NCBI GenBank assembly: GCA_023666275.1
Contig: JAMPCJ010000001.1
Span: 124,001-188,000, forward strand
Length of the DNA stretch: 64,000 bases
Direction: 5' to 3'
Origin: Treponema brennaborense
GTDB lineage: Bacteria > Spirochaetota > Spirochaetia > Treponematales > Treponemataceae
Under the pieces are notes generated by a model that was given only the letters and a program-made list of their open reading frames with translations, was not told the origin of the DNA and made no database searches. The position numbers and the translations under genes were made by a program. Shown here piece after piece: positions 52,560-63,699 of the stretch; the stretch's first letter is position 1, and every line of letters starts with the position of its first letter.

Positions 52560-52874
52560 TTATTTTTCAAAATATGTTTTTAACGTTGCATAAATAGCAG
52601 TGAGCATTCTATGTTCTTCTATTATACTTATATTGCCTTTTCCTTCAGATAAATTCTGGATTTCCGTTGAAGCGAAAAATTCTGCCGGCTCAACAGAAAG
52701 AACAGTTGCCATGGTGATAATCAAGTCGAACGACGGCTTCGCGATTCCGCACTCAATGTTGCCAATTGTACCGGTCGCAACATTACACGCCTCCGCAAAC
52801 TGCGCCTGAGAAAAACCCTTTTTACAGCGAAGATACTTTACGTTTGTCACAAAGTCTCTCTGGTATTTATCCAT
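52560..52874 (-). CDS. XRE family regulator of the TerY island
   Basis: This 104-residue protein has an N-terminal HTH (about 9-60: LRCKKGFSQAQFAEACNVAT, GTIGNIECGIAKPSFDLIIT), followed by a short helical tail. ATG 52874 is chosen by family start; a -10-like TATACT ends 8 nt before it and the ribosome-binding site is weak (GGGA). It is divergent from the TerY-C gene, with a 33-bp dyad between them (52918-52950). A repressor of the island is the simplest role. Confidence 0.87.
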   Translation of the reverse strand: MDKYQRDFVTNVKYLRCKKGFSQAQFAEACNVATGTIGNIECGIAKPSFDLIITMATVLSVEPAEFFASTEIQNLSEGKGNISIIEEHRMLTAIYATLKTYFEK

Positions 52875-52917
52875 GATTTCCCAGTATAAAATGCAGTTTT
52901 TAGCATTGAAATAATAT

Positions 52918-52950
52918 TTAATTGATAATAAAATTATATTTATCAATTAA
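52918..52950. promoter_or_regulatory. Dyad operator between the XRE gene and the TerY island
   Basis: TTAATTGATA (52918-52927) and TATCAATTAA (52941-52950) are perfect 10-bp arms around a 13-nt AT-rich spacer, in the 108-nt divergent gap. It is a likely binding site for the XRE protein that controls both directions. Confidence 0.6.
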
Positions 52951-52982
52951 ATTGGGTAAATATAGGAGAAATTTGCCATACC

Positions 52983-53408
52983 ATGATGAAATTGCCGGCA
53001 AAATTGGTCAACTCAGACGAAGAAACAAAAAAAATTCGCGCGAAAGTCATTTTATGCCGCTGCGCAAAAAAATCGGACAATGAAAATTTTTTCGGAACAA
53101 GAATTGAAGAGCGCGGCAGAATTTGGCAGCGAACATGGAGTTTCAAAATCGACGAAACGAAAGCAAAACACGAAAGCTGGGACTCGCAGAAAATCACGAG
53201 TTCGCTGGACGCAGCGCAAGGCTACAACGGCTGCCCGTATTGCGGCGGATTTTCGCTGGCACAATGCGGAGCGTGCGGGAAATTATTTTGCTTCGGAAAC
53301 GAAATTTCCTTAAACCGAGATCAGTTCGAAATGAAATGCCCGTGGTGCGCAAAAACCGGCATTTATCAGACTGCGGAAACACTTGAAATTCAAGGCGGAG
53401 GAATGTGA
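52983..53408 (+). CDS. TerY-C-like zinc-binding protein
   Basis: This 141-residue protein has cysteines arranged as CRC (about 25-27), CPYC-x8-CGACG and CPWC, so two zinc ribbons are expected in the C-terminal half (QGYNGCPYCGGFSLAQCGAC, then EMKCPWCAKTGIY). Such a metal-binding domain (TerY-C) is found fused to or beside TerY vWA proteins. ATGATG gives start 52983 or 52986; AGGAG lies 13 nt upstream. Its stop overlaps the kinase start by one base (TGATG), so it is coupled with it. It may hold the kinase and vWA protein together. Confidence 0.7.
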   Translation: MMKLPAKLVNSDEETKKIRAKVILCRCAKKSDNENFFGTRIEERGRIWQRTWSFKIDETKAKHESWDSQKITSSLDAAQGYNGCPYCGGFSLAQCGACGKLFCFGNEISLNRDQFEMKCPWCAKTGIYQTAETLEIQGGGM

Positions 53409-54703
53409 TGACATTCGGAAAGGGCGAACGAATAAATCTCGAAGGCGGCAAAATTGCCGCGATAAAAGAAAAACTCGGCGAAGGAGGACAAGGCATTGTC
53501 TACAAAGTCGAAGTGGACGGGAAGCCTTGCGCGCTCAAATGGTACACGTGTCGATTTAAAAACACAAAAAAATTTCGCGCCAATTTGCAGGCGAATATCT
53601 CAAGCGGCGCACCCGACGAAAAATTTTTATGGCCGAAATTTCTCACAGAAGAAAAATACGCAAGCTTCGGATATGTGATGGATTTGCGCCCGAAAGAATT
53701 TTCCGATTTTTCCGACATCCTGAACAACAAAATAAAATTCACTTCCACGCAAAAAAGCGTTCTCGCCGCGCTTAACATCACAAATGCGTTCCGCGAACTG
53801 CACAGAAAAGGATTGAGTTACCAAGATTTGAATGACGGAAATTTTTTTGTTAATGTTGAAAACGGCGACGTTTTGATTTGCGACAACGACAACGTAACTC
53901 CCGGCGGAATGAAAAATCCAGGCAACATCGGCGGGAAGCCCGGCTATATGGCTCCCGAAGTTTTCAGAGGCGACACATTTCCCGGAGTGCTATCGGACAA
54001 CTATTCGCTCGCCGTAATTTTGTTCAAGCTCTTCTGCCGGCACGATCCGATGATGGGTGATGCGTTTGTGAAAAGCGTCTGCATCACGGAAAGTCGCGAA
54101 ATGGAACTTTACGGCACGAAGCCTGTTTTTATTTTCAATCCGAACGATGCTTCGAACCGTCCTGTTCCAGGCGTTCATCCGAATCCGCTCAAACTTTGGC
54201 CGAGGCTTCCGCCTTACATCCGCGATGCGTTTGTAAAATCGTTCGTAGACGGAATAAAAAATCCAAACGAACGCCTGCCAGACAACGAATGGCAAAAAAA
54301 ATTGATGCGCTTTCTCGACGAGATGGTTGTCTGCCCGATTTGCAAAAGCGAACACATGATTTACAAATTCGAAAAAGGCAACGAAATGAAATTCGGATGC
54401 GGGCACAATTTCAGCTATCCGCGAATTCTCAAAAGCAAGGGGTACGAAATTCCTCTTTTCCCAGGTCAGAAAATCCGCGCCTGTCATATTACGGAAAAAA
54501 GTGACGATTTCAAAAAAATCGAAGGCGAAGTGATTATGAACAAAAACAATCCGGCGTTGTGGGGAATAAAAAATTCGGGCGATACCGATTGGACTTTCAT
54601 TGCCGGCGGCGAGGTGAAGAAAGTCGGGAAAAATTCCGTTTTGCCGATTGCAGCGGATATGGAAATCAACTTCGGCGGCGTGAATGCGAAAATCGTACTG
54701 TAA
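53408..54703 (+). CDS. Ser/Thr protein kinase of a TerY-P system, with C-terminal zinc ribbon
   Basis: This 431-residue cytoplasmic kinase has the Gly-rich loop GEGGQG (24-29), ATP Lys44 (CALKWY), catalytic loop YQDLNDGN (Asp140, Asn145; Tyr-Gln-Asp where most have His-Arg-Asp), metal Asp159 or 161 in ICDNDN and APE at 182-184. All key residues for activity are present. After the kinase domain (about 20-305) comes a zinc ribbon (VVCPICKSEHMIY, FGCGHNF) and a beta-rich end (GDTDWTFIAGGEVKKVGKNS). GGAGG is before ATG 53408. Kinase, TerY and PP2C are known as the TerY-P triad. Confidence 0.85.
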   Translation: MTFGKGERINLEGGKIAAIKEKLGEGGQGIVYKVEVDGKPCALKWYTCRFKNTKKFRANLQANISSGAPDEKFLWPKFLTEEKYASFGYVMDLRPKEFSDFSDILNNKIKFTSTQKSVLAALNITNAFRELHRKGLSYQDLNDGNFFVNVENGDVLICDNDNVTPGGMKNPGNIGGKPGYMAPEVFRGDTFPGVLSDNYSLAVILFKLFCRHDPMMGDAFVKSVCITESREMELYGTKPVFIFNPNDASNRPVPGVHPNPLKLWPRLPPYIRDAFVKSFVDGIKNPNERLPDNEWQKKLMRFLDEMVVCPICKSEHMIYKFEKGNEMKFGCGHNFSYPRILKSKGYEIPLFPGQKIRACHITEKSDDFKKIEGEVIMNKNNPALWGIKNSGDTDWTFIAGGEVKKVGKNSVLPIAADMEINFGGVNAKIVL

Positions 54704-54741
54704 AATTTTTTGAGGGAGAGACAAATTGATCGGAGGCAAAA

Positions 54742-55467
54742 ATGGGAATGTTTGACGATGTGGAAGGAATCGTAAAGCGGCAGATGGTTTTGTTTTTTAT
54801 CGTTGACTGCTCCGGCAGCATGACAGGAACGAAAATAACCGCGGTGAACCAGGCAGTGCGCGATGTTCTGCCGGAGTTACAGGACGCAGGCGGGAGCGAT
54901 GTGGACTTGAAAGTGGCGTGTCTGAAATTTTCCACGGGCTGCGAATGGATGTATCCGAATCCTGTCGCGAGCGAAATTTTTTCATGGCAGGAACTTCAGG
55001 CGGACGGCGTTACGGATTTCGGCGCGGCATGCGAAGAGCTTTCCCAGAAACTTTCACGCAACGAATTTTTGAAGGCGCCTTCCGCAAGTGTTGCGCCCGC
55101 ACTTTTTTTGATGAGCGACGGCGAACCGACTGATGACTATGTGTCCGGTTTGAAAAAACTGCGCGAGAACAATTGGTTCAAAAACGCAATCAAAGTGGCA
55201 GTGGCAATCGGCGACGACGCAAATAAAGATGTGCTCAAAGAATTCACAGGCAACATCGAGGCAGTGATTACAGTCCACACGCCGGAAGCCTTAAAAAAAT
55301 GGATTCGCGCGGTTTCCGTAACAAGTTCGAAAATCGGAAGCAGAAGCCAGCCGATGAGCGACGGTGAAGTTCAGACAAAGCAAAATGCGGTTATCGACGA
55401 AATCAAGGAAATCCGGCAAACCGAAGCCGACTTGAACACAACTTCAACAAACAGCGATGACTGGTGA
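54742..55467 (+). CDS. terY: TerY-like vWA domain protein
   Basis: This 241-residue protein has a von Willebrand A domain with a complete MIDAS site: Asp22, Ser24, Ser26 (FIVDCSGSMTG), Thr91 (GVTDFGAA) and Asp126 (LMSDGEPTDD). TerY proteins have this layout and act with Ter stress systems or with kinase/phosphatase pairs. GGAGG is 8 nt upstream. It lies 38 nt behind the kinase. The last 40 residues are charged and probably flexible, possibly the target of phosphorylation. Confidence 0.88.
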   Translation: MGMFDDVEGIVKRQMVLFFIVDCSGSMTGTKITAVNQAVRDVLPELQDAGGSDVDLKVACLKFSTGCEWMYPNPVASEIFSWQELQADGVTDFGAACEELSQKLSRNEFLKAPSASVAPALFLMSDGEPTDDYVSGLKKLRENNWFKNAIKVAVAIGDDANKDVLKEFTGNIEAVITVHTPEALKKWIRAVSVTSSKIGSRSQPMSDGEVQTKQNAVIDEIKEIRQTEADLNTTSTNSDDW

Positions 55468-55601
55468 AATTCGGAGAAAATTTCGCGACAAATTTTTTTG
55501 TGAAAATCGGGCGGTATGCCTGATTATTCTCGAAAGTGCGCGGAGCATTTTCGGGAAATATTTTAAAAGTCCATGCAGAATTGCTTGGCAAGGAATATTT
55601 T

Positions 55602-56150
55602 ATGAATTGCAAATTTCATCCCACAGCAGAAGCTGTAACAACGTGCGCAAATTGCGGTGCGGGAATATGCTCGTCATGTAATAAAGAAGCGTTTTTTAAA
55701 ACGAAAAATGGGCAACCGCACTGCATAGAATGCAGTTTGAAAGAGGCAGAGGAAAATGTTGATTCTGAAAAAAAATTTTTGAAAGGAATAAAAAGAGAAT
55801 TGATTTTTTCCACTATATTTTTTGTTTTAGCTATTCTTTGTTTTATCCCCTCAATAGTTGAAGGAAAGGGAGATACAGCAGGAGTTCTAATAGGGATATT
55901 GTTCTGGTTATTGTCCGGTCTTATTCAAACTCGGGGACACGAAAATAATAAAGGCAGTATAAAATCAATTATATGGTCGAACACGGATCAAGGGAAATTT
56001 TCATTTTCTAAAATCATTTTTTATATCTTTGCAGCCCCTGTTATGTTGATTAAAAATTTTATTGAATATCCCAAATCAAAGGCCTGTTATCAATTGGATA
56101 TACAAGAATATGAAAAAATAAAAGCCGCTTATGCTAATGCAAAACGGTGA
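55602..56150 (+). CDS. B-box-type zinc finger membrane protein
   Basis: This 182-residue protein begins with a B-box-like zinc finger (MNCKFHPTAEAVTTCANCGA, GICSSC, PHCIEC; Cys/His ligands at about 3-43). Two membrane helices follow (about 69-85 and 96-110) and a third is likely near 137-155. The zinc finger would be cytoplasmic. AAGGAA is 8 nt upstream of the ATG. GC content is far lower than in the kinase and TerY genes, so it was probably added from another source. It sits inside the TerY run in the same direction. Confidence 0.75.
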   Translation: MNCKFHPTAEAVTTCANCGAGICSSCNKEAFFKTKNGQPHCIECSLKEAEENVDSEKKFLKGIKRELIFSTIFFVLAILCFIPSIVEGKGDTAGVLIGILFWLLSGLIQTRGHENNKGSIKSIIWSNTDQGKFSFSKIIFYIFAAPVMLIKNFIEYPKSKACYQLDIQEYEKIKAAYANAKR

Positions 56151-56212
56151 TTTTCAAAACCAGCAGGCGTAATTACTTGCGCCTGTTTGGAAAACATATT
56201 GAGGAGAATTTT

Positions 56213-57529
56213 ATGGGTGGTAAAATAATCGCTGAGATAGCAATTTTATGTATTGTATTACGTTGCTTCATATGGGAAATGCCTCAATACAATTATGATC
56301 TATGGAAAAAGATATTCTGCGCTATTGCAATATTATGTTTGATAATAGGATTGTTTTCTGCTTCAAATTTATTTTTTTCCATTGCATTTCATGCCACAGT
56401 GTTCTATCTGTTTGTATTTTTATGCAGCGTAACAAATGCATTTTTCCCGTTTTTTTTAATTGGAATTGCGAAGTTAGTTAGCACCGTGTGTTTTCTTAAT
56501 TCCAATTTTAATTATTCTAATATTATCAATGCAATTCTTGTATTGACTATGCTAGCAACGCTAGTCTTGGAGAAAAGAAATCTAGCAAAGAAAGAAAAAG
56601 AAGCCGAAGAAAAGACTATAAGAAATAACGATTTGTTAGACGCTATAAATAGGCGTGACAAAGAAACTGCCCGAAGGTTAATAGCAGATGATGTCGATGT
56701 CAATTATGTCGGGTTTGTCAATTGCAGAAACAAGACAATACTACAAGTTGCTGTTGAAATCGGTGACAAAGATATTGTTTCCCTTTTAATAGATAAAGGC
56801 GCAGATGTAAATCAAGAAGCAGACGGGAAAAGAGCTTTAGATTATGCCAAAGAGGATGAAATAATCTCTATTCTAAGAGGTCATGGTGCAAAAACAAAAG
56901 CCGAATCAGAAGAACAAGATAAGGCTGATATTGACTTTGTTTATGCTATAGGCTGTCATGATGTAGAGAGAGTGAAATCTTTAATTTCACAAATATCTAA
57001 TATCGATACTATTCCTTCTAATATTAACAAACCTAACATGCCTAAGCATGTGTTTGATCTTGAACTCGTTAGTTATAACCAGTACTCAGATGAATTAAAA
57101 AAATATATAGATGGGAATATAACACCTTTGTTGTTTGCGTCTTATAACGATGATATAGAAATGGTAAAGCTTTTAGTGGAAAATGGCGCAAATGTAAACA
57201 GCCAAAGTTCTTATGGTCTGACTGCATTGATGTTTGCTTCTATTTATTATAAACAACAGAGAGAACACACTATAGAGCTTATTGATTTTTTGATAAGTAA
57301 AGGAGCCGATATGAATAAAAAAAGCTATGATGTTGAAGGTCTGGTTGCTAAAACGGCACTGATGCTCGCAATATCCGCTGGAAATATTGATGCTATATTG
57401 GCGTTGATAAAAAATGGAGCAGATGTAAATGTAAAGGCATCCAATGGTGCTACAGCATTATCTATAGCGAGGGGAAAAGAATTTACAGAAATAGAAAATC
57501 TTTTAATTCAAAGCGGAGCATATAATTAG
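56213..57529 (+). CDS. Membrane-anchored ankyrin-repeat protein
   Basis: This 438-residue protein has about four N-terminal membrane helices (about 5-135), a charged linker (KKEKEAEEKTIRNND) and then ankyrin repeats from about 150 to the end. Clear repeats are NKTILQVAVEIGDKDIVSLL, NITPLLFASYNDDIEMVKLL, GLTALMFASIYYKQQREHTI and KTALMLAISAGNIDAILALI, each closing with xxGADVN. A 60-residue spacer interrupts the array (about 250-300). The start is set by GAGGAG 7 nt upstream. The gene is AT-rich. Ankyrin domains bind proteins, so it may present a target to the kinase or phosphatase at the membrane. Confidence 0.85.
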   Translation: MGGKIIAEIAILCIVLRCFIWEMPQYNYDLWKKIFCAIAILCLIIGLFSASNLFFSIAFHATVFYLFVFLCSVTNAFFPFFLIGIAKLVSTVCFLNSNFNYSNIINAILVLTMLATLVLEKRNLAKKEKEAEEKTIRNNDLLDAINRRDKETARRLIADDVDVNYVGFVNCRNKTILQVAVEIGDKDIVSLLIDKGADVNQEADGKRALDYAKEDEIISILRGHGAKTKAESEEQDKADIDFVYAIGCHDVERVKSLISQISNIDTIPSNINKPNMPKHVFDLELVSYNQYSDELKKYIDGNITPLLFASYNDDIEMVKLLVENGANVNSQSSYGLTALMFASIYYKQQREHTIELIDFLISKGADMNKKSYDVEGLVAKTALMLAISAGNIDAILALIKNGADVNVKASNGATALSIARGKEFTEIENLLIQSGAYN

Positions 57530-57565
57530 GCTTAATGCTAAATACAAACAAAACAGGTGAAACAA

Positions 57566-58138
57566 ATGAATTCTTTGAACATAGACGCGTTCAAAAAGGC
57601 ACTGGAAAGCGGTGATGAAAAAAGTATCGCGAAAATGACAAATGAAATTGAAGAACTTTCATTTAAATGGACAGGAGTGCGCTCAAGTAGAAATACAGAC
57701 GCAGAAAAGACTGGCAGTGCATCAGAATTGCATACAGATAAATTCCAAAATGTAGACGGAGGAACATTCCTTTCAGCGTGCGAACGTGGTGATGTTGATT
57801 TTGTCCGAGCTGCCTTGCAAAGCAATAAATCTTTGGCGAATACAATCAATAAAGACGGCGATAGTGCATTGGCACTCGCGGCTGGCGCCGGCAAGAAAGA
57901 TATTGTTAAACTTCTTTTGAACAATGGCGCAAATGCGAGAACAACGAATTTTATTGGTTGCAATGCACTTCATTGGGCACTCGATACGGGAGACTATGAC
58001 ATAGCTGCACTATTAGTAAATGCAGGGGCTGATGTGAACGCGAACGCTGCTTTTATGGGAACTCCGCTGCAAAAAGCAACGGCAAGAGGATACTATAACA
58101 TAGTGCAGTTGCTGTTGGAAAACGGCGCGCGAAGATGA
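57566..58138 (+). CDS. Ankyrin-repeat protein, soluble
   Basis: This 190-residue protein has an N-terminal helical part (about 1-70) and three ankyrin repeats (about 72-190): GTFLSACERGDVDFVRAALQ, DSALALAAGAGKKDIVKLLL and GCNALHWALDTGDYDIAALL, the last unit ending in LLLENGARR. The end is abrupt: the next 23 codons in another frame encode the end of a further ankyrin repeat. ATG 57566 has AGGTG 7 nt upstream. No membrane helix. Confidence 0.85.
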   Translation: MNSLNIDAFKKALESGDEKSIAKMTNEIEELSFKWTGVRSSRNTDAEKTGSASELHTDKFQNVDGGTFLSACERGDVDFVRAALQSNKSLANTINKDGDSALALAAGAGKKDIVKLLLNNGANARTTNFIGCNALHWALDTGDYDIAALLVNAGADVNANAAFMGTPLQKATARGYYNIVQLLLENGARR

Positions 58139-58206
58139 GTATGGCTGAAAAGGAAGAGCATAAAAACATACTGAACTTACTGCAAGCTTATGGTGCGGCA
58201 GAGTAA
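58135..58206 (+). pseudogene. C-terminal ankyrin fragment in a shifted frame
   Basis: Starting with ATG 58135 (ATGA overlap with the upstream stop) 23 codons encode MSMAEKEEHKNILNLLQAYG and AAE. This reads like the last helix pair of an ankyrin repeat, and the short REDEYG remnant is in yet another frame at 58131-58148. So the upstream protein seems to have lost its last repeat by small deletions. It could still be made as a peptide by coupled translation. Confidence 0.5.
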
Positions 58207-58273
58207 AACACAACATTCAAAAAAGAATGCGAGTTTCGCATTCCAATAAATTTTATTGCTATGGAGACAAAAT

Positions 58274-58474
58274 ATGGCACGAATCGTACTTGATTCAAAT
58301 GGTAACAAGCTAGGGTCTTATGAGGGGAGTAATGACATCGGCAAAGTTTTTGATAAAGATGGCAACCCTGCGGGCGAGTATTGGGGTGGTGACATTTTTG
58401 ACAGAAATGGGAGCAGGGTATGCTCACACAACGGCGATCCTGAAAAGACCGTAAGAATCTTGCTCGAAAGGTAG
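58274..58474 (+). CDS. Small beta-repeat protein (beta-flower-like)
   Basis: This 66-residue protein is built of three short repeats with a common pattern I/V-x-D-x-x-G (RIVLDSNGNKLGSY, KVFDKDGNPAGEYW, DIFDRNGSRVCSH), as in the 4-fold beta-flower proteins found near bacterial conflict systems. The family name is my best match, not a certain one. GGAG is 8 nt before ATG 58274; the frame has no use upstream. A hairpin terminator follows at 58482-58509. It is the last gene of the AT-rich block before PP2C. Confidence 0.6.
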   Translation: MARIVLDSNGNKLGSYEGSNDIGKVFDKDGNPAGEYWGGDIFDRNGSRVCSHNGDPEKTVRILLER

Positions 58475-58481
58475 GTTTAAG

Positions 58482-58509
58482 AGTACACGGCAAAATTTTG
58501 CTGTGTACT
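58482..58509. terminator. Hairpin behind the beta-flower-like gene
   Basis: AGTACAC, G, GCAAAATTTTGC, T, GTGTACT pair over the full 28 bp, with one G-T pair. It is followed by TTAATT, not a full T-run. Confidence 0.6.
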
Positions 58510-58619
58510 TTAATTACAGTTTGCATTGTAAACTGCCTTATCAACTGCTATATTTTCGCCTAAAACTACGCGCAACGAGTTCGTTGTAAGACACGTTGCT
58601 GCAAAATTAAGAAATACTT

Positions 58620-58642
58620 TTGCAATAAGTAAAATATTGCAA
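58620..58642. promoter_or_regulatory. TTGCAATA/TATTGCAA dyad upstream of the PP2C gene
   Basis: TTGCAATA (58620-58627) and TATTGCAA (58635-58642) form a perfect 8-bp dyad with a 7-nt spacer, 43 nt before the PP2C start. The same arms with an 8-nt spacer are found at 63793-63816 upstream of topB. A shared regulator or the promoter architecture of a mobile unit could explain this. Confidence 0.5.
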
Positions 58643-58685
58643 TTCAAGAATGTTTATCAATTGAGGTGTTTGATTCAAACATAAA

Positions 58686-59588
58686 ATGATTGAATGTATA
58701 AAAGCGCAGGCGCAAGGCTTTTCCCATAAAGCGCAGGGCAAACCTTGCCAAGATGCGGTGAGCGTGGTGCAGAAAAAAGACTACTCGATAATTTCCGTTG
58801 CGGACGGGCATGGCGGCGAACGGTATTTCCGAAGCGGCATCGGATCACGCTTGGCAGTTGAAGTTGCGCAGGCGGAATTCGAAAAACTTTTTCTCGCCGT
58901 TTCAAGACAGCTGCCGGGCGGAAAGATCAACTGGGAGAAAACATTAAAATCGCTTGAAAGCAATATCGTAAAAAAATGGCAGGATAAAGTTGAGGAAGAT
59001 TTTGCGGCGCATCCGTTTTCTTCGGAAGAACACGCACTCGCGGAAAAATTGGAAATCGACTTTTGCATGGCGGAAAAAGAAAATTGCGAACGTGAAAAAA
59101 TCTGCGGCATTCGCTTTCGCAATTCGGAAATCCTCAAATGCTACGGAAGCACGCTGCTTTGTGCGCTGTATACTCCCACGCTCAAATTTCCCAATTCAAA
59201 AAAATCCTTTTGGATTGCGCTTCAAATCGGCGACGGCTTAACATTTGCGCTGGACGAAAACGGCGAAGAATTTCTGCCGATTCCCGACGACGAAAAACTA
59301 GGCTTCGGAGTTACGACAAGCATTTGCTCTTCAAATGCTGCGGAAAATTTTCGGCATGCATTCGGATTTTCGAAACTGAGCACGCTTGTAGTCTGCACAG
59401 ACGGAGTGGCGGATTCTTTTGCAAAAGAAAAATTCGGCGCGTTTGTCAAAGACATTTTGCACAATATGAATGAGCAAGGACGCGAAAAAACGCAGCAGGG
59501 ATTGCAGGAATATTTTCCCAAACTGAGCGAGCAAGGTTCCGGCGACGATTTGAGTTTGGCCGGAATTTTTGAAATAAAAGGAAAGTGA
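58686..59588 (+). CDS. PP2C-family protein phosphatase of the TerY-P system
   Basis: This 300-residue phosphatase has metal-binding Asp23 (GKPCQDAVSV) and Asp40 (SVADGHGG), then QIGDGLTFAL, CTDGVADSF and QGSGDDLSLAG, the full PP2C set, so it should be active. A helical insert lies at about 70-130. It would reverse phosphorylation by the kinase at 53408. There is no good ribosome-binding site next to the ATG (GAGG is about 17 nt away). Its GC content matches kinase and TerY, not the AT-rich genes between them, which suggests that these genes were inserted into an original triad. Confidence 0.87.
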   Translation: MIECIKAQAQGFSHKAQGKPCQDAVSVVQKKDYSIISVADGHGGERYFRSGIGSRLAVEVAQAEFEKLFLAVSRQLPGGKINWEKTLKSLESNIVKKWQDKVEEDFAAHPFSSEEHALAEKLEIDFCMAEKENCEREKICGIRFRNSEILKCYGSTLLCALYTPTLKFPNSKKSFWIALQIGDGLTFALDENGEEFLPIPDDEKLGFGVTTSICSSNAAENFRHAFGFSKLSTLVVCTDGVADSFAKEKFGAFVKDILHNMNEQGREKTQQGLQEYFPKLSEQGSGDDLSLAGIFEIKGK

Positions 59589-59599
59589 GGTAATTGGAA

Positions 59600-59977
59600 A
59601 TGGATAATAAAGTTGGTGAAATTGCAAAAATATCAAGTTCGGTTTCGCTATTCCTAGATAAATTTAAAAATGAGCAGAACGAATTTTCTTTGAAAGTAAA
59701 TGTATCTTTTGTCATTATTTCGTTTGTTGCACTGTTGATTTTGATATTGGTTATTTCAAAAATAATTACCAAGTTACGTGAAAAAAAACATCGAAAAAGA
59801 AAAATGCTTATTCAACAGCGACTCATTATTGCCGCTGGCAATAATGACAAAGACGAAGTTTTGAATTTATTGGAAAAGGGCGCGTATGTGGATTATAAAG
59901 ATGCAGACGGAAACGCGCCTTTATTAAATGCAGTGAAGAATAAAAATCTGTCAACAGTTTTTAATTTTTTCGTTTGA
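59600..59977 (+). CDS. Membrane protein with truncated ankyrin domain
   Basis: This 125-residue product has one membrane helix (about 33-57, VNVSFVIISFVALLILILVI) and one and a half ankyrin repeats (RLIIAAGNNDKDEVLNLLEK, GAYVDYKDADGNAPLLNAVK). The second repeat breaks off after KNKNLSTV and ends FNFFV and stop. The rest was probably lost when the transposase segment arrived, which starts about here. ATG 59600 is 11 nt behind the PP2C stop, and the frame could start at TTG 59594. Probably a remnant of a protein like that at 56213. Confidence 0.65.
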   Translation: MDNKVGEIAKISSSVSLFLDKFKNEQNEFSLKVNVSFVIISFVALLILILVISKIITKLREKKHRKRKMLIQQRLIIAAGNNDKDEVLNLLEKGAYVDYKDADGNAPLLNAVKNKNLSTVFNFFV

Positions 59978-60182
59978 ATTTTTCTAATATTTTTGAGTTT
60001 TTTTGCTTTTTTCTACAGGAACTAGCTAAAATCGGATTTTTTATGGCAAGATAGCTTACAAAAATTGAAATTCAGCCCATTTTGCGGCGTTTTAAACTAA
60101 TTTAGGGCACAACGAAACAGAATGCACCGATAGTACACTCGAAAATTGAGGCAATTTGACTTTGATTGGAACATCGATTTTG

Positions 60183-61451
60183 CTACGCGGGCTTTAGCTC
60201 GTATTCAAGTTCCTTGTATACTTCTCTGTATTTCGGTTTGGCATTTTTCAAGAAGTATTCCTCTATCAGATCTTTCCAAACTTCGGGCATGGTTCCAGAG
60301 GTGTCGGTTTCCAGAAGCTCAACCTTATAGTGCGTCTTTGTCTTTTCAGGCTCGCACCAAAGTCCGCCCTTTATCGACAGGCAGATTTTAACTTTCTGAC
60401 CGGCAAGTTCTTTGCAAAAAAACCGGTAGCCTTTCAACTCGAATACGCCGCCGCTGTCCACTTTTCCGATTGTTACAAGGCGCAGATATTGATTTACTTG
60501 CTCCATGTCCGCCGGAATGAATGCGCTTTCATCGCTTTTTGGCTTAACTGCATATTTCCTGTTGAATTTCGTGATATACTTCGGAAGCACTGCATTTGCT
60601 TCCTCAATGGTCTTTACGCCGTGCAACCAGAACCAAAACGGAAGCTGCCCCTGCAAAGTCTGCCACATTCGTTCTACCCTGCCTTTCGCTTGCGGCGAAT
60701 TTGCCGGAATCAGTTCTATGCCGAATTTATTCATAATTCTGCCGAATTGAGTCGGATCATCTGTAATCTTTCCGTCTCGCACCGTGCAGAAAATCTGCGC
60801 CTTGTCGGTGTAGATTGCTTCGGGAAGTCCGTGTTCCAACGCCATCGTTCTGAAACATTCATGATAGCCGAAAGAACATTCATTCTTTGTCATGTAAAGC
60901 GAAACGAGCTGACCGGTGGCGTCGTCAATAAATCCGTGAATGCACGACTTGTGTCCGTCCCGAAACCAGTCGTGTTCCGAGCCGTCCGCTTGAATGAGTT
61001 CGCCTTTCCTTGCTTTTCGTTCACGGGTGAAATGAAATATCTTGTCTTTCAGCCTGCTCGACCTCGGTGAAATATAACGGCAGTCTTTTTTAAGGATTTT
61101 TTTCGCATAACTTTCGGAAACTTTGATGCCGAAGCTGTCTTTTAAAATTTCGACAAAATAGGAATATGATATTCCCTCGAATGTTTCTCCTTCGATTTTC
61201 GTATTTTGAAAGATATCAACGATTTTCTGTCTGATAAGTTTGAACTCTTCTTTTTCGTATGACCTCCCCTTGTTGCCGTGGATAAAAGCTCTGTCGCCTA
61301 AGATTTTACACGCAATGACTTTATACTCTATGCAGCGCTGGGTAACGCACAAATCAAATGCTGCCTGCTTTGTGCTGATTTCCTTTCTGATTACTTTTTC
61401 GATAACAGACTTGTACGCAGTTTGTCTGTCAGTTAATTCCAATTTTTCCAT
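60183..61451 (-). mobile_element. Insertion sequence transposase, ISNCY/IS1202-like
   Basis: This 422-residue DDE transposase has Asp in QADGSEHDWF, Asp in YTDKAQIFCTV and Glu in AKGRVERMWQTLQ, the catalytic triad of the rve-type integrase core, and an N-terminal HTH region (ISTKQAAFDLCVTQRCIEYK). The order and the QxDGSxHxW motif fit the IS1202 group of ISNCY. The gene is complete with no frameshift. I could not identify terminal inverted repeats or target duplications; the left end is probably near 59960-60180 and the right end between 61452 and 61543. It could move the neighbouring TerY or topB genes. Confidence 0.85.
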
Positions 61452-61467
61452 AATCCTAATCCTTCCC

Positions 61468-61491
61468 TTCGGATGCGACGTCGCACCCGAA
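61468..61491. repeat. Palindromic element, copy A (intergenic)
   Basis: TTCGGaTGCGAC and GTCGCAcCCGAA form a 24-bp palindrome with one mismatch pair. It lies between the transposase and topB. It is identical over 26 bp to copy E at 63700-63727 on the other side of topB. Confidence 0.85.
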
Positions 61492-61543
61492 AATTCAAAC
61501 CCTAATAATTCAAAAATTTTATTATCCGAATTTCAATCGAAAA

Positions 61544-63580
61544 TCAATGCCCGAATTCCATTTTGATTTGACTGTTTGAATCAAGATACAGCCGCGCAGT
61601 GAAATCTTTGCCTGTTTTCTTTGAATGCAGCCTTTTCAGGGGCGTTTTCTTGCCAGAACAAAGGAGCGCGACGTCGCGCTCGGAAAGCTTGCTGTCGCAG
61701 AAGTTTTCCCATATCGTAAAACCGCAGCTGTTTTTATATCCTGTACAAAACCAATGTTTGTATCCCGATTTCGTTGTTCCGTATTTTAACGGTTGTTTGC
61801 AGCGCGGGCATAAAACTTGATTTTCATCCGGAGGAACTTCGATTTCAAAAGGAACCTTGACTGCTGTTTTTATAAACGTTTTTATTTCACTTTCAAAAAG
61901 TTCAGGATTTTCCTCAAGACGTTTTTCCCAGTCGGTTGTTTGTGCAATATCGGCAAAGGACTTTATCGAAGAGTTGCGAACCGCTTCGATTACCGTCTTT
62001 CCAAGCTGAGTAATCAAAATTTTCCCCTCAACTTTGATGTAGCCGTTTGCTTTTAATTCGGGAATGAAAGTGTGCCGTGTTGCCTGGGTTCCCAGTCCCA
62101 AGAGTTTTCCGTTTTCGTCCTCGCTTTTCGGATTTTCCATAAAGGCAAGGATTGACGCTTCATTAAAATATTTCGGCGGTTTTGTCCATTTTTCTTTTGT
62201 TTCGGCTTCCAAAAGACAAAGATTGTTCCAATCGATGTTTTCAAGCGATTGTTCTTCGGCGGAGCGCGACGTCGCGCTCGAAAATCTTTTCCATCCCAAA
62301 TCCAAAGTCTGTGTTCCCGTAATTTTGTAAGTGTGTCCGTTCACGGAAAGCACGACGGACTGCCTGTTGTAGACGAACGTCGACGCAAACGCGACTTTAA
62401 AGCGGTTCAGGATGAGGCTGTAAATCTGCGTTTCTTTTTCGCCCGCATCTGACGGAAGAGTTTTCAGCGGAATCAGAGCGTGGTGAGCTTCAAGTTTTGC
62501 ATCATTAAAGCAGCGTTTATTATTCAATGAGATATCAGAAATTTTCAAAGCTTCATTGAAATCAGGATAAGTTTTTGCAAGATCGCCGAAAATTTTATTC
62601 ACAAGCGCAACGTTGCCGCTTCCCATAACTTTTGACGGAGTTCGCGGATAGGAAACGCATTTATATTCTTCGTAGAGTCTTTGGATGACGAAAAGTGTCT
62701 CTTCGGCAGAAAATCCGTAGAGTTTGAATGCGTCTTTTTGAACTGCATTCAGATTGTAGAGCTGCGGCGCGGGAATTTCTTTTTTTTCGGTTTTATTTTC
62801 GACAACGTTTGCTGCTTTTGAAACATCGGCTTTCAATTCTGTTTCCAAGGCGTTGTTTGAAAATTGAGTTTTATTTTCAGGCACAAAAAAAATTCCCTTG
62901 CAGACAGGAGCGCAACGTTGCGCTCCGAACGAGCCGAAGAACTCATAATATTTTTCAGCTTTGAAATTCTGTATTTGAGAGCATCTTGCGTCTATCGCCG
63001 AGAGAATTGCGGTTTTTACTCTGCCGATGGAGAGTTTTTTTTTCGCAGCGATGGAGATATAGCGTGTAAAATTATACCCTGTAAGCCAGTCGGAATGCTG
63101 GCGGGCGAATCCTTTTTCGGCGAGCTTATCGTATTCTGAAAGAGGCTTTGCGTTTTTAATACCTTCTCGGATAACTTCGGGAGTGAGCGCCTGAGAAACC
63201 CAAAATCTTTTGACACGCGAAAAATCAATGATACCTGATTGTTCAAGACATTCGCGAGCTATAATTTCGCCCTCGCGGTCGGCGTCAGTGGCAATCAGAA
63301 TTGTATCATAGCGATGCCGTCTCAAAAGAGATGTTACTCCGCTCGCTTGTGCTTTTACAGTATCGTTTACCGCATATGAAAACTTTTCGGGAATGCAGGG
63401 CAGTTCTTTCCAGGATTTAAAACGTTCGTCATAAAAACAAGGTTCTTCCAATCGGAATAAATGGCCTACGCAGTTAGTGATGTCTGTCTTTCCGTCTGAG
63501 TAATATCCAGAGTGAAACTGACAGCCGAGAACATTTGCGAAGTCTTTTGCGACGGCAGGTTTTTCTGTGAGAATTAACAT
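61544..63580 (-). CDS. topB: DNA topoisomerase III (type IA), carrying palindromic inserts
   Basis: This 678-residue topoisomerase relaxes or decatenates DNA by cutting one strand. The TOPRIM domain holds DADRE at 99-103 (LIATDADREGEIIA), the active-site Tyr is Tyr311 in VSYPRTPSK, and GIGTxxTR is represented by GLGTQATRHTFIPEL. One zinc ribbon is near the end (CPRCKQPLKYGTTKSGYKHW, then CTGYKNSCGF). ATG 63580 is supported by AAAGGAG 8 nt upstream. Three palindromes lie in frame, giving GAQRCAP (219-225), SSATSRS and ERDVAL. TopB genes like this are usual on conjugative or other mobile elements. Confidence 0.93.
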   Translation of the reverse strand: MLILTEKPAVAKDFANVLGCQFHSGYYSDGKTDITNCVGHLFRLEEPCFYDERFKSWKELPCIPEKFSYAVNDTVKAQASGVTSLLRRHRYDTILIATDADREGEIIARECLEQSGIIDFSRVKRFWVSQALTPEVIREGIKNAKPLSEYDKLAEKGFARQHSDWLTGYNFTRYISIAAKKKLSIGRVKTAILSAIDARCSQIQNFKAEKYYEFFGSFGAQRCAPVCKGIFFVPENKTQFSNNALETELKADVSKAANVVENKTEKKEIPAPQLYNLNAVQKDAFKLYGFSAEETLFVIQRLYEEYKCVSYPRTPSKVMGSGNVALVNKIFGDLAKTYPDFNEALKISDISLNNKRCFNDAKLEAHHALIPLKTLPSDAGEKETQIYSLILNRFKVAFASTFVYNRQSVVLSVNGHTYKITGTQTLDLGWKRFSSATSRSAEEQSLENIDWNNLCLLEAETKEKWTKPPKYFNEASILAFMENPKSEDENGKLLGLGTQATRHTFIPELKANGYIKVEGKILITQLGKTVIEAVRNSSIKSFADIAQTTDWEKRLEENPELFESEIKTFIKTAVKVPFEIEVPPDENQVLCPRCKQPLKYGTTKSGYKHWFCTGYKNSCGFTIWENFCDSKLSERDVALLCSGKKTPLKRLHSKKTGKDFTARLYLDSNSQIKMEFGH
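61664..61681. repeat. Palindromic element, copy B (inside topB)
   Basis: GAGCGCGAC and GTCGCGCTC make a perfect 18-bp palindrome. It is coding and reads E-R-D-V-A-L in the C-terminal zinc-ribbon domain of TopB. Confidence 0.85.
62262..62279. repeat. Palindromic element, copy C (inside topB)
   Basis: The same 18-bp palindrome as copy B but in a different reading phase, coding S-S-A-T-S-R-S. The flank CGAAAA on the right is shared with copies A and E. Confidence 0.85.
62907..62926. repeat. Palindromic element, copy D (inside topB)
   Basis: GGAGCGCAAC and GTTGCGCTCC form a perfect 20-bp palindrome. Both arms carry a matching change relative to copies B and C (GAC/GTC to AAC/GTT), so the pairing was kept. 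It codes for G-A-Q-R-C-A-P in TopB. Confidence 0.85.
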
Positions 63581-63699
63581 TGCGAACTCCTTTGGGCAGG
63601 CGGTTCGTCTTATATTTTGTATAAAATACAATAAAAATCAAGACATAAAAGCAATGCGATTGAAAATTATGAATATTTGCGAAATTTATCTTTATTCAG

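What the first reader, a model, noticed from the sequence alone, without database searches (positions are those of the whole stretch)
52560..59977. TerY-P kinase/vWA/PP2C triad expanded with ankyrin, B-box membrane and beta-flower modules
Sequence shows, in one direction after a divergent XRE gene: TerY-C zinc protein, Ser/Thr kinase with intact catalytic residues, TerY vWA with intact MIDAS, a B-box membrane protein, two ankyrin proteins, a beta-flower-like protein, a PP2C with intact metal sites, and a truncated membrane-ankyrin gene. Established: kinase, TerY and PP2C form the TerY-P triad seen with Ter stress systems. Not seen: TerB, TerC, TerD or other ter genes. Inference: this is a variant in which ankyrin and membrane proteins provide sensing or targeting, perhaps in stress or phage defence.
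Basis: partly seen in the sequence, partly recalled or inferred. Interest (0 to 1): 0.9.

Follow-up and report, generated by a model that had tools for sequence, protein, structure and literature searches.

The report
Kinase switch with swappable ankyrin cassette
A conserved bacterial phosphorylation switch (kinase, vWA protein, phosphatase) moves between Treponema species carrying ankyrin and B-box membrane genes that differ wildly between copies whose switch is nearly identical, the pattern expected of a recognition module in an arms race, although its function is untested.

Summary
Window 52560-59977 encodes a divergent XRE regulator, a stand-alone TerY-C protein, a kinase, a vWA protein with intact MIDAS, a B-box membrane protein, two ankyrin proteins, a beta-flower-like protein, a PP2C and a truncated membrane-ankyrin gene. 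The core is a TerY-P-type triad that recurs in several bacterial phyla and in archaeal (Bathycorpusculum) bins. vWA and PP2C are adjacent in 60 of 62 scored loci. TerD is absent from all four genomes that carry the expanded locus.

The insert is not strain-specific: three other Treponema genomes have it. It is also not intrinsic to the triad: nearly the same ankyrin/beta-flower cassette occurs in a 99%-complete genome with no such kinase.

The unexpected result is the pattern of variation. In two species whose GroEL DNA is 75% identical, the triad DNA is 94-97% identical, while the cassette genes between vWA and PP2C fall to 29-49% protein identity in mosaic blocks. In one genome the B-box gene is missing exactly between two copies of a repeated leader.

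I read it as a horizontally mobile TerY-P switch with an exchangeable cassette, probably for sensing or targeting in genetic conflict. The function is inferred, not shown.

The parts
52560..52946 (-). XRE-family (HTH_3) regulator, divergent from the operon
   Evidence: Pfam HTH_3 41.9 bits. A Prevotella plasmid has an HTH gene next to its TerY-C gene too.
52983..53408 (+). stand-alone TerY-C metal-binding protein
   Evidence: PF15616 33.2 bits, over cut-off. Same position in many relatives and on Prevotella plasmid pE2-28.
53405..54703 (+). Ser/Thr kinase, then zinc ribbon, then FHA-like beta domain
   Evidence: Pkinase 59.6 bits; catalytic residues invariant in 19 relatives; C-terminal model pLDDT 94 with FHA domains as best matches.
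54742..55467 (+). TerY-like vWA protein with intact MIDAS
   Evidence: VWA 35.6 bits; DCSGS / T / D seen in the sequence.
55545..55609 (+). leader repeat with a small hairpin just before the B-box ribosome-binding site
   Evidence: 87% match to the G354 leader. In the family it is found strongly only in the four expanded loci; copies and the junction are.
55602..56150 (+). B-box-like zinc-finger membrane protein
   Evidence: zf-B_box 17.3 bits, below cut-off; 8 relatives with invariant Cys; hydrophobic segments.
56213..57529 (+). membrane protein with ankyrin repeats (ANK1)
   Evidence: Ank_2 105.8 bits; N-terminal hydrophobic segments.
57566..58138 (+). soluble ankyrin protein (ANK2); alternative GTG start at 57557
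   Evidence: Ank_2 74.7 bits; relative in kinase-less G125.
58274..58474 (+). small beta-flower-like protein
   Evidence: Bflower 21.6 bits, below cut-off; AF2 model of six strands and a helix, pLDDT 90; 8 relatives in the family.
58686..59588 (+). PP2C phosphatase
   Evidence: PP2C_2 111.6 bits; metal-site motifs seen in the sequence.
59594..59977 (+). truncated membrane-ankyrin gene (TMANK)
   Evidence: Resembles the start of intact 786-1068-aa genes in G203, G354 and Mgla; no continuation found in the window.
59985..61521 (.). insertion sequence with transposase 60183-61451 (-)
   Evidence: 25-nt terminal inverted repeats, 76% complementary; weak rve_3 match.

Best explanation
It is a TerY-P-type phosphorylation switch combined with an exchangeable cassette. 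Shown by sequence: the conserved core is TerY-C, kinase-zinc ribbon-FHA-like domain, vWA and PP2C; it has moved horizontally between distant Treponema species and lies beside conjugation genes in the window genome. Shown by sequence: between vWA and PP2C, and after PP2C, sits a cassette of B-box, membrane-ankyrin, ankyrin and beta-flower genes whose alleles and gene content are replaced in blocks while the core hardly changes. Inferred: the cassette proteins are the variable input or targeting layer, some of them at the membrane, that meets changing foreign or cellular proteins. Inferred: binding changes the kinase/phosphatase balance, with vWA, TerY-C and the FHA-like domain assembling the complex. 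Inferred: the phosphorylated target then carries out a conflict response, most likely against phage or other mobile elements. The confidence is for the whole statement including the inferred function; the anatomy and the variation pattern alone I hold at about 0.9.
For: The triad recurs in several phyla with vWA and PP2C adjacent in 60 of 62 scored loci. The insert is shared by four genomes. Core proteins 92-98% identical among G354, G203 and Mgla, while B-box is 29% and ankyrins 47-49% between G354 and G203, with sharp boundaries in the DNA. Horizontal transfer: the GroEL gene of G203 is 75% identical to Mgla's, and carB/aro genes on the same G203 contig as vWA and PP2C are only about 70-79% identical to other genomes, yet the triad region is 94-97%. 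Related cassette without the kinase in G125. Leader-to-leader junction in Mgla. Neighbouring conjugation genes. Defence genes beside close relatives of the triad: ZorB 7e-67, CARF 8e-79. TerY-P against T7-like phages is reported from Gao 2020 (PMC7699616; PMC11090510).
Against: No experiment. No nuclease or other obvious killing effector in this locus. dN/dS of the cassette genes is below 1, so diversifying selection as such is not shown; replacement by divergent alleles explains the pattern. The cassette lives without the triad in other genomes, so a functional link is not proven. All three comparison genomes are metagenome bins. The TerY-P-like antiphage modules described use a kinase with an OB-fold, not the zinc ribbon/FHA-like tail seen here.
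Confidence: 0.42

Rival explanations
1. Polyimmunity-like array: the ankyrin, B-box and beta-flower genes are orphan immunity proteins against varied rival toxins, and merely share an operon with the triad.
For: Ankyrin immunity proteins and two-TM immunity proteins are described in polyimmunity loci, which differ even between strains (PMC3482391). The cassette varies in gene content and alleles and exists without the triad.
Against: No known Imm or SUKH family matched in these proteins. That paper lists extended polyimmunity loci only from proteobacteria, bacteroidetes, firmicutes and actinobacteria. Cassette order and the position around PP2C are kept in four genomes.
Confidence: 0.22
2. Hitchhiking only: two unrelated mobile modules landed together and are co-transferred, with no shared function.
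For: Each module occurs without the other. Conjugation genes and an insertion sequence adjoin the window locus. The cassette genes BBOX, ANK1 and TMANK are more AT-rich (GC 0.31-0.34) than the core (0.46-0.50).
Against: The interleaving (cassette, PP2C, membrane-ankyrin) is kept in four genomes, including one of another genus whose kinase differs at about dS 1. Random co-residence should have been broken up.
Confidence: 0.18
3. Metal or tellurite stress module of the classical Ter kind.
For: TerY-C and vWA proteins are part of Ter-linked systems; a Klebsiella ter plasmid carries TerY-C, PP2C, kinase and vWA genes beside TerD.
Against: No TerD in any of the four genomes.
Confidence: 0.06
4. Housekeeping cell-envelope signalling like E. 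coli YegI/PphC, not linked to conflict.
For: YegI is a membrane kinase dephosphorylated by PphC (a PP2C); a gene (yegJ) lies between the two in K-12 only (PMC13232886).
Against: Patchy distribution (58 of 394 genomes of the order), horizontal transfer, and defence genes in related operons do not look like housekeeping.
Confidence: 0.12

Closest known systems
TerY-P triad (TerY vWA, PP2C, Ser/Thr kinase; Anantharaman et al. 2012, as cited in PMC11090510)
   Same: Same three enzymes in one operon, kinase with a zinc ribbon, TerY-C protein present, linked to conflict genes in relatives.
   Different: A cassette of B-box, ankyrin and beta-flower genes sits between vWA and PP2C; TerY-C is a separate gene; no TerD; an FHA-like domain follows the zinc ribbon.
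TerY-P antiphage system tested by Gao et al. 2020 (described in PMC7699616 and PMC11090510)
   Same: vWA, PP2C and Ser/Thr kinase.
   Different: That kinase is described as fused to an OB-fold; the window kinase ends in a zinc ribbon and an FHA-like domain. The cassette is extra.
Type II/III-A CoCoNuT-associated TerY-P (PMC11090510)
   Same: TerY-P modules there are described as augmenting other defence genes, and other genes (ATPases) are inserted beside TerY-like vWA genes.
   Different: No CoCoNuT genes were seen in this locus, and the inserted genes are ankyrin/B-box/beta-flower.
GAP1-N2-associated kinase-PP2C-vWA loci of actinobacteria (PMC7159879)
   Different: No GAP1-N2 GTPase seen here.
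Polyimmunity loci (PMC3482391)
   Same: Tandem, fast-changing gene array that includes ankyrin proteins.
   Different: Joined to a phosphorylation triad; no recognised immunity families.

Membership tests
TerY-P triad | Ser/Thr kinase, TerY-like vWA and PP2C in one operon | tested here: met
   order recurs in relatives.
TerY-P triad | kinase with C-terminal zinc ribbon | tested here: met
   CxxC...C pattern conserved in 38 C-terminal sequences; the fourth Cys is commonest but varies, and is Lys in the window protein.
TerY-P triad | vWA with intact MIDAS | tested here: met
   DCSGS, T and D present in window:54742-55467 (sequence).
TerY-P triad | vWA and PP2C genes adjacent (usual arrangement, not part of the published definition) | tested here: not met
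   Four genes lie between them here; this affects arrangement, not composition.
Ter stress system | TerD present | tested here: not met
   No TerD in G000, G354, G203 or G422. TerB and TerC were not searched.
Gao 2020 TerY-P defence system | kinase fused to an OB-fold | tested here: inconclusive
   The model of the C-terminal part matches FHA domains throughout the lists shown; an OB-fold was not tested directly.
Gao 2020 TerY-P defence system | protects against T7-like phages | not testable with these tools
   Needs a phage assay.
PADLOC defence models | match to a curated defence model | tested here: inconclusive
   vWA and PP2C give no hit, but neither do the vWA, TerY-C and PP2C proteins of a classical ter plasmid, so the library seems to lack the family.
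Canonical FHA domain | FHA-like fold | tested here: met
   AF2 pLDDT 94; Foldseek probability 1.00 for the top FHA hits; Z 8.7 to the DgcB FHA, 86 residues at 3.0 A.
Canonical FHA domain | phosphothreonine-binding Gly-Arg and SxxH residues | tested here: not met
   Not among the conserved columns of 38 relatives.
B-box zinc finger | conserved Cys/His metal ligands and score over the curated cut-off | tested here: inconclusive
   Ligands invariant in 9 sequences, but scores stay below the cut-off (17.3 and 21.0 vs 24.1).
Polyimmunity locus | recognised immunity protein families | tested here: not met
   No Imm or SUKH match over threshold. Imm-Ank has no model that separates it from other ankyrins, so this lowers the claim only.

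The most novel reading that the evidence does not exclude
A bacterial receptor-like system in which a conserved, horizontally mobile phosphorylation switch keeps one signalling core while membrane ankyrin/B-box/beta-flower recognition genes are swapped in blocks by recombination between repeated leaders, giving each strain a different sensing repertoire.
Probability: 0.27. Interest if true: 0.88.

Novelty: new variant of a known kind. Interest (0 to 1): 0.63.

Why it matters
What TerY-P switches sense is an open question. A clade in which the switch stays constant while one small gene set is swapped points directly at the candidate sensing or targeting genes and makes the question testable by cassette exchange. 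If the cassette is the recognition layer, it would be a phosphorylation-based immune-like system with exchangeable recognition genes, a combination I have not seen described (own knowledge and the papers read here).

Tried and rejected
Search for the kinase on viral contigs with the single protein gave nothing; with the alignment only 3 distant loci, which I did not examine. B-box on viral contigs: nothing. vWA in phage records: one weak match. PADLOC as a membership test was dropped after the control also failed. A pattern for the leader missed two of its own copies because the loop length varies; a 66-nt query replaced it, and its many matches at E above 1e-4 are chance. Promoter-like sites are at the shuffled expectation (19 vs 16.4) and terminator-like sites only slightly above it (14 vs 8.8), and were not used. 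The beta-flower model has no convincing match among solved structures (best E 0.21). I considered that G203 merely belongs to the same species group as G354/Mgla; GroEL and carB reject that. I considered mis-binning of the G203 contig: the divergent carB/aro genes lie on the same 18-kb contig as vWA and PP2C, so a contig-level binning error does not explain it, though an assembly chimera cannot be fully excluded.

Full report
What is there. Pfam places HTH_3, TerY_C, Pkinase, VWA, PP2C_2 and the ankyrin families of the two complete ankyrin genes above their cut-offs; the B-box and beta-flower matches are below theirs. I corrected three starts from the sequence: B-box 55602, ankyrin-1 56213, beta-flower 58274. 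The kinase keeps its catalytic Lys, Asp, Asn and metal-binding Asp in all 19 aligned relatives, with HRD read as YQD and DFG as DND. TerD is absent from this genome and from the three genomes that share the expanded locus.

Kinase tail. The C-terminal 131 residues were modelled at mean pLDDT 94. The model is a small zinc ribbon followed by a beta domain whose best structural matches are FHA domains (top Foldseek hits at probability 1.00, although the best E-value is only 0.004; Z 8.7, 86 residues at 3.0 A to the DgcB FHA domain). The canonical phosphothreonine-binding residues are not among the conserved columns, so I call it FHA-like and do not claim phosphopeptide binding.

The triad elsewhere. 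In the order, 58 of 394 genomes have this kinase, and neighbourhoods show kinase-vWA-PP2C in a row almost everywhere, often with TerY-C just upstream. A scan of one genome per species returned loci named as Spirochaetota, Bacillota, Bacteroidota, Synergistota, Riflebacteria and the archaeon Candidatus Bathycorpusculum. Of 62 loci with all three genes scored, 60 have vWA and PP2C adjacent; the two exceptions are L097 and L098, both Treponema relatives of the window. A Prevotella plasmid shows HTH, TerY-C, kinase, vWA and PP2C in that order.

Operon partners. Triads with 63-69% kinase identity to the window's carry, in the same direction, a ZorA/ZorB-like pair (ZorB model 7e-67) or a CARF/Csx1-like gene (8e-79) with a DUF6884 gene. 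This fits the literature that ties TerY-P to conflict: it is described as a defence against T7-like phages (PMC7699616), and as an add-on to CoCoNuT systems (PMC11090510).

The insert in other genomes. G354 (L036/L097) has B-box, three ankyrins and beta-flower between vWA and PP2C, and a 1033-aa membrane-ankyrin gene after PP2C. G203 (L037 and L087) has the same layout. Treponema sp. Mgla_MAG_20 (L098, also G422) has it without the B-box gene, and its beta-flower slot holds a different protein with a weak match to the 5-fold beta-flower family. So the insert is shared by four genomes, one of them (the window) in another genus.

The cassette without the triad. G125 (99% complete) carries ankyrin, ankyrin, ankyrin-2, beta-flower (73% identical to the window's), membrane-ankyrin and a terminal ankyrin in the same order as the triad loci but with no PP2C between beta-flower and membrane-ankyrin, and no kinase of this family anywhere in the genome. 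G446 has XRE, beta-flower, Sel1, B-box and membrane-ankyrin without a kinase. In the family, 9 of 274 genomes have the B-box protein and 9 have the beta-flower protein (the weak G422 match included); six have both. Three of those six are triad loci, so the independent cases are G308, G446 and G432. G432 has only a distant kinase match.

Variation. Between G354 and G203 the DNA identity is 96-99% through vWA, falls to 41-53% inside the B-box gene, 44-73% in ankyrin-1, about 60-64% in the small ankyrin and 44-64% in ankyrin-2, then returns to 89-94% in beta-flower and 93-99% in PP2C. Between G354 and Mgla ankyrin-1 is mostly 92-100%, the small ankyrin 62-64%, and beta-flower 38-49%. Protein identities agree: kinase, vWA and PP2C 92-98% among these three, B-box 29% and ankyrin-1 47% between G354 and G203, and Mgla's beta-flower only 25% identical to G354's. 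Ankyrin repeats can misalign and inflate distances, but the B-box gene has no repeats and shows the same drop. dN/dS is below 1 throughout, so I describe replacement by divergent alleles, not proven positive selection.

Leader repeat. A leader of about 58 nt with a small hairpin precedes B-box, ankyrin-1 and the small ankyrin in G354, and B-box in the window. In the family it matches strongly only in these four loci. In Mgla the sequence left of the leader equals the vWA-B-box spacer and the sequence right of it equals the start of ankyrin-1, so the B-box gene is missing exactly between two leader copies. Deletion through the repeats is the simplest reading; the reverse (insertion with a leader) is not excluded. 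The hairpin stem keeps pairing through G-C to A-U changes between copies, based on few sequences.

Horizontal transfer. GroEL DNA of Mgla is 96% identical to G354, 75% to G203 and 73% to the window genome. On the same G203 contig as vWA and PP2C, a stretch with carB and a DAHP synthase gene matches other genomes at only about 70-79%, 73% for most of carB in G354 and Mgla. Yet the triad region of G203 is 94-97% identical to G354 and Mgla. So the core moved between distant species recently, and the cassette alleles differ. In the window genome, a topoisomerase gene at 61544-63631 and, beyond the window, VirB8, CagX, TrbI and a sub-threshold relaxase match suggest a conjugative element next door; I did not establish its boundaries.

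Truncation. The last gene resembles the start of the intact membrane-ankyrin genes and ends at an insertion sequence with imperfect 25-nt inverted repeats at 59985-60009 and 61497-61521. Intact copies exist in relatives.

How it probably works. Shown: composition, order, horizontal spread, block exchange. Inferred: the kinase/PP2C pair sets a phosphorylation state, vWA and TerY-C assemble or gate it, and the exchangeable membrane and ankyrin proteins provide specificity. The main competitor is a polyimmunity-like array that merely shares the operon (PMC3482391); hitchhiking comes next. Sequence data alone cannot separate these.

Novelty. The triad is known. The interleaved, exchangeable ankyrin/B-box/beta-flower cassette, its separate existence, and the contrast between a near-identical core and a divergent cassette were not found in the papers I read; the library holds only open-licence papers, so I cannot claim that nobody has described it. 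I file it as a new variant of a known kind.

Noticed in passing
L044:4915-7888 and L038:4473-7701: TerY-P operons with a ZorA/ZorB-like pair plus an unknown 415-423-aa protein directly after PP2C, a possible Zorya-like system under TerY-P control.
   Followed up: partly
L040-L043, L045: TerY-P operons with an upstream CARF/Csx1-like gene (L040, L041, L043, L045), DUF6884 and conserved unknown proteins; the same set in several Treponema species.
   Followed up: partly
L089:1372-7436 and L187:470-6988: A cassette of Sel1 repeats, TPR protein, AAA+ protein (AAA_lid_6) and zinc-ribbon protein with beta-flower (and B-box in L089), without the triad.
   Followed up: partly
L112, L113: Bathycorpusculum (archaeal) bins carry kinase-vWA-PP2C 53-54% identical in the kinase to the window's; possible cross-domain transfer or binning error.
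   Followed up: no
window 61544-63631 and L095:1133-5613: Topoisomerase, relaxase-like, VirB8, CagX and TrbI genes beside the locus: probable conjugative element, boundaries not determined.
   Followed up: partly
L039:7412-11413: A TerY-P operon with a second, shorter kinase of the same family right after PP2C (G235).
   Followed up: no
L218, L219, L220: Three contigs listed as viral encode 38-42% identical kinases; context not examined.
   Followed up: no
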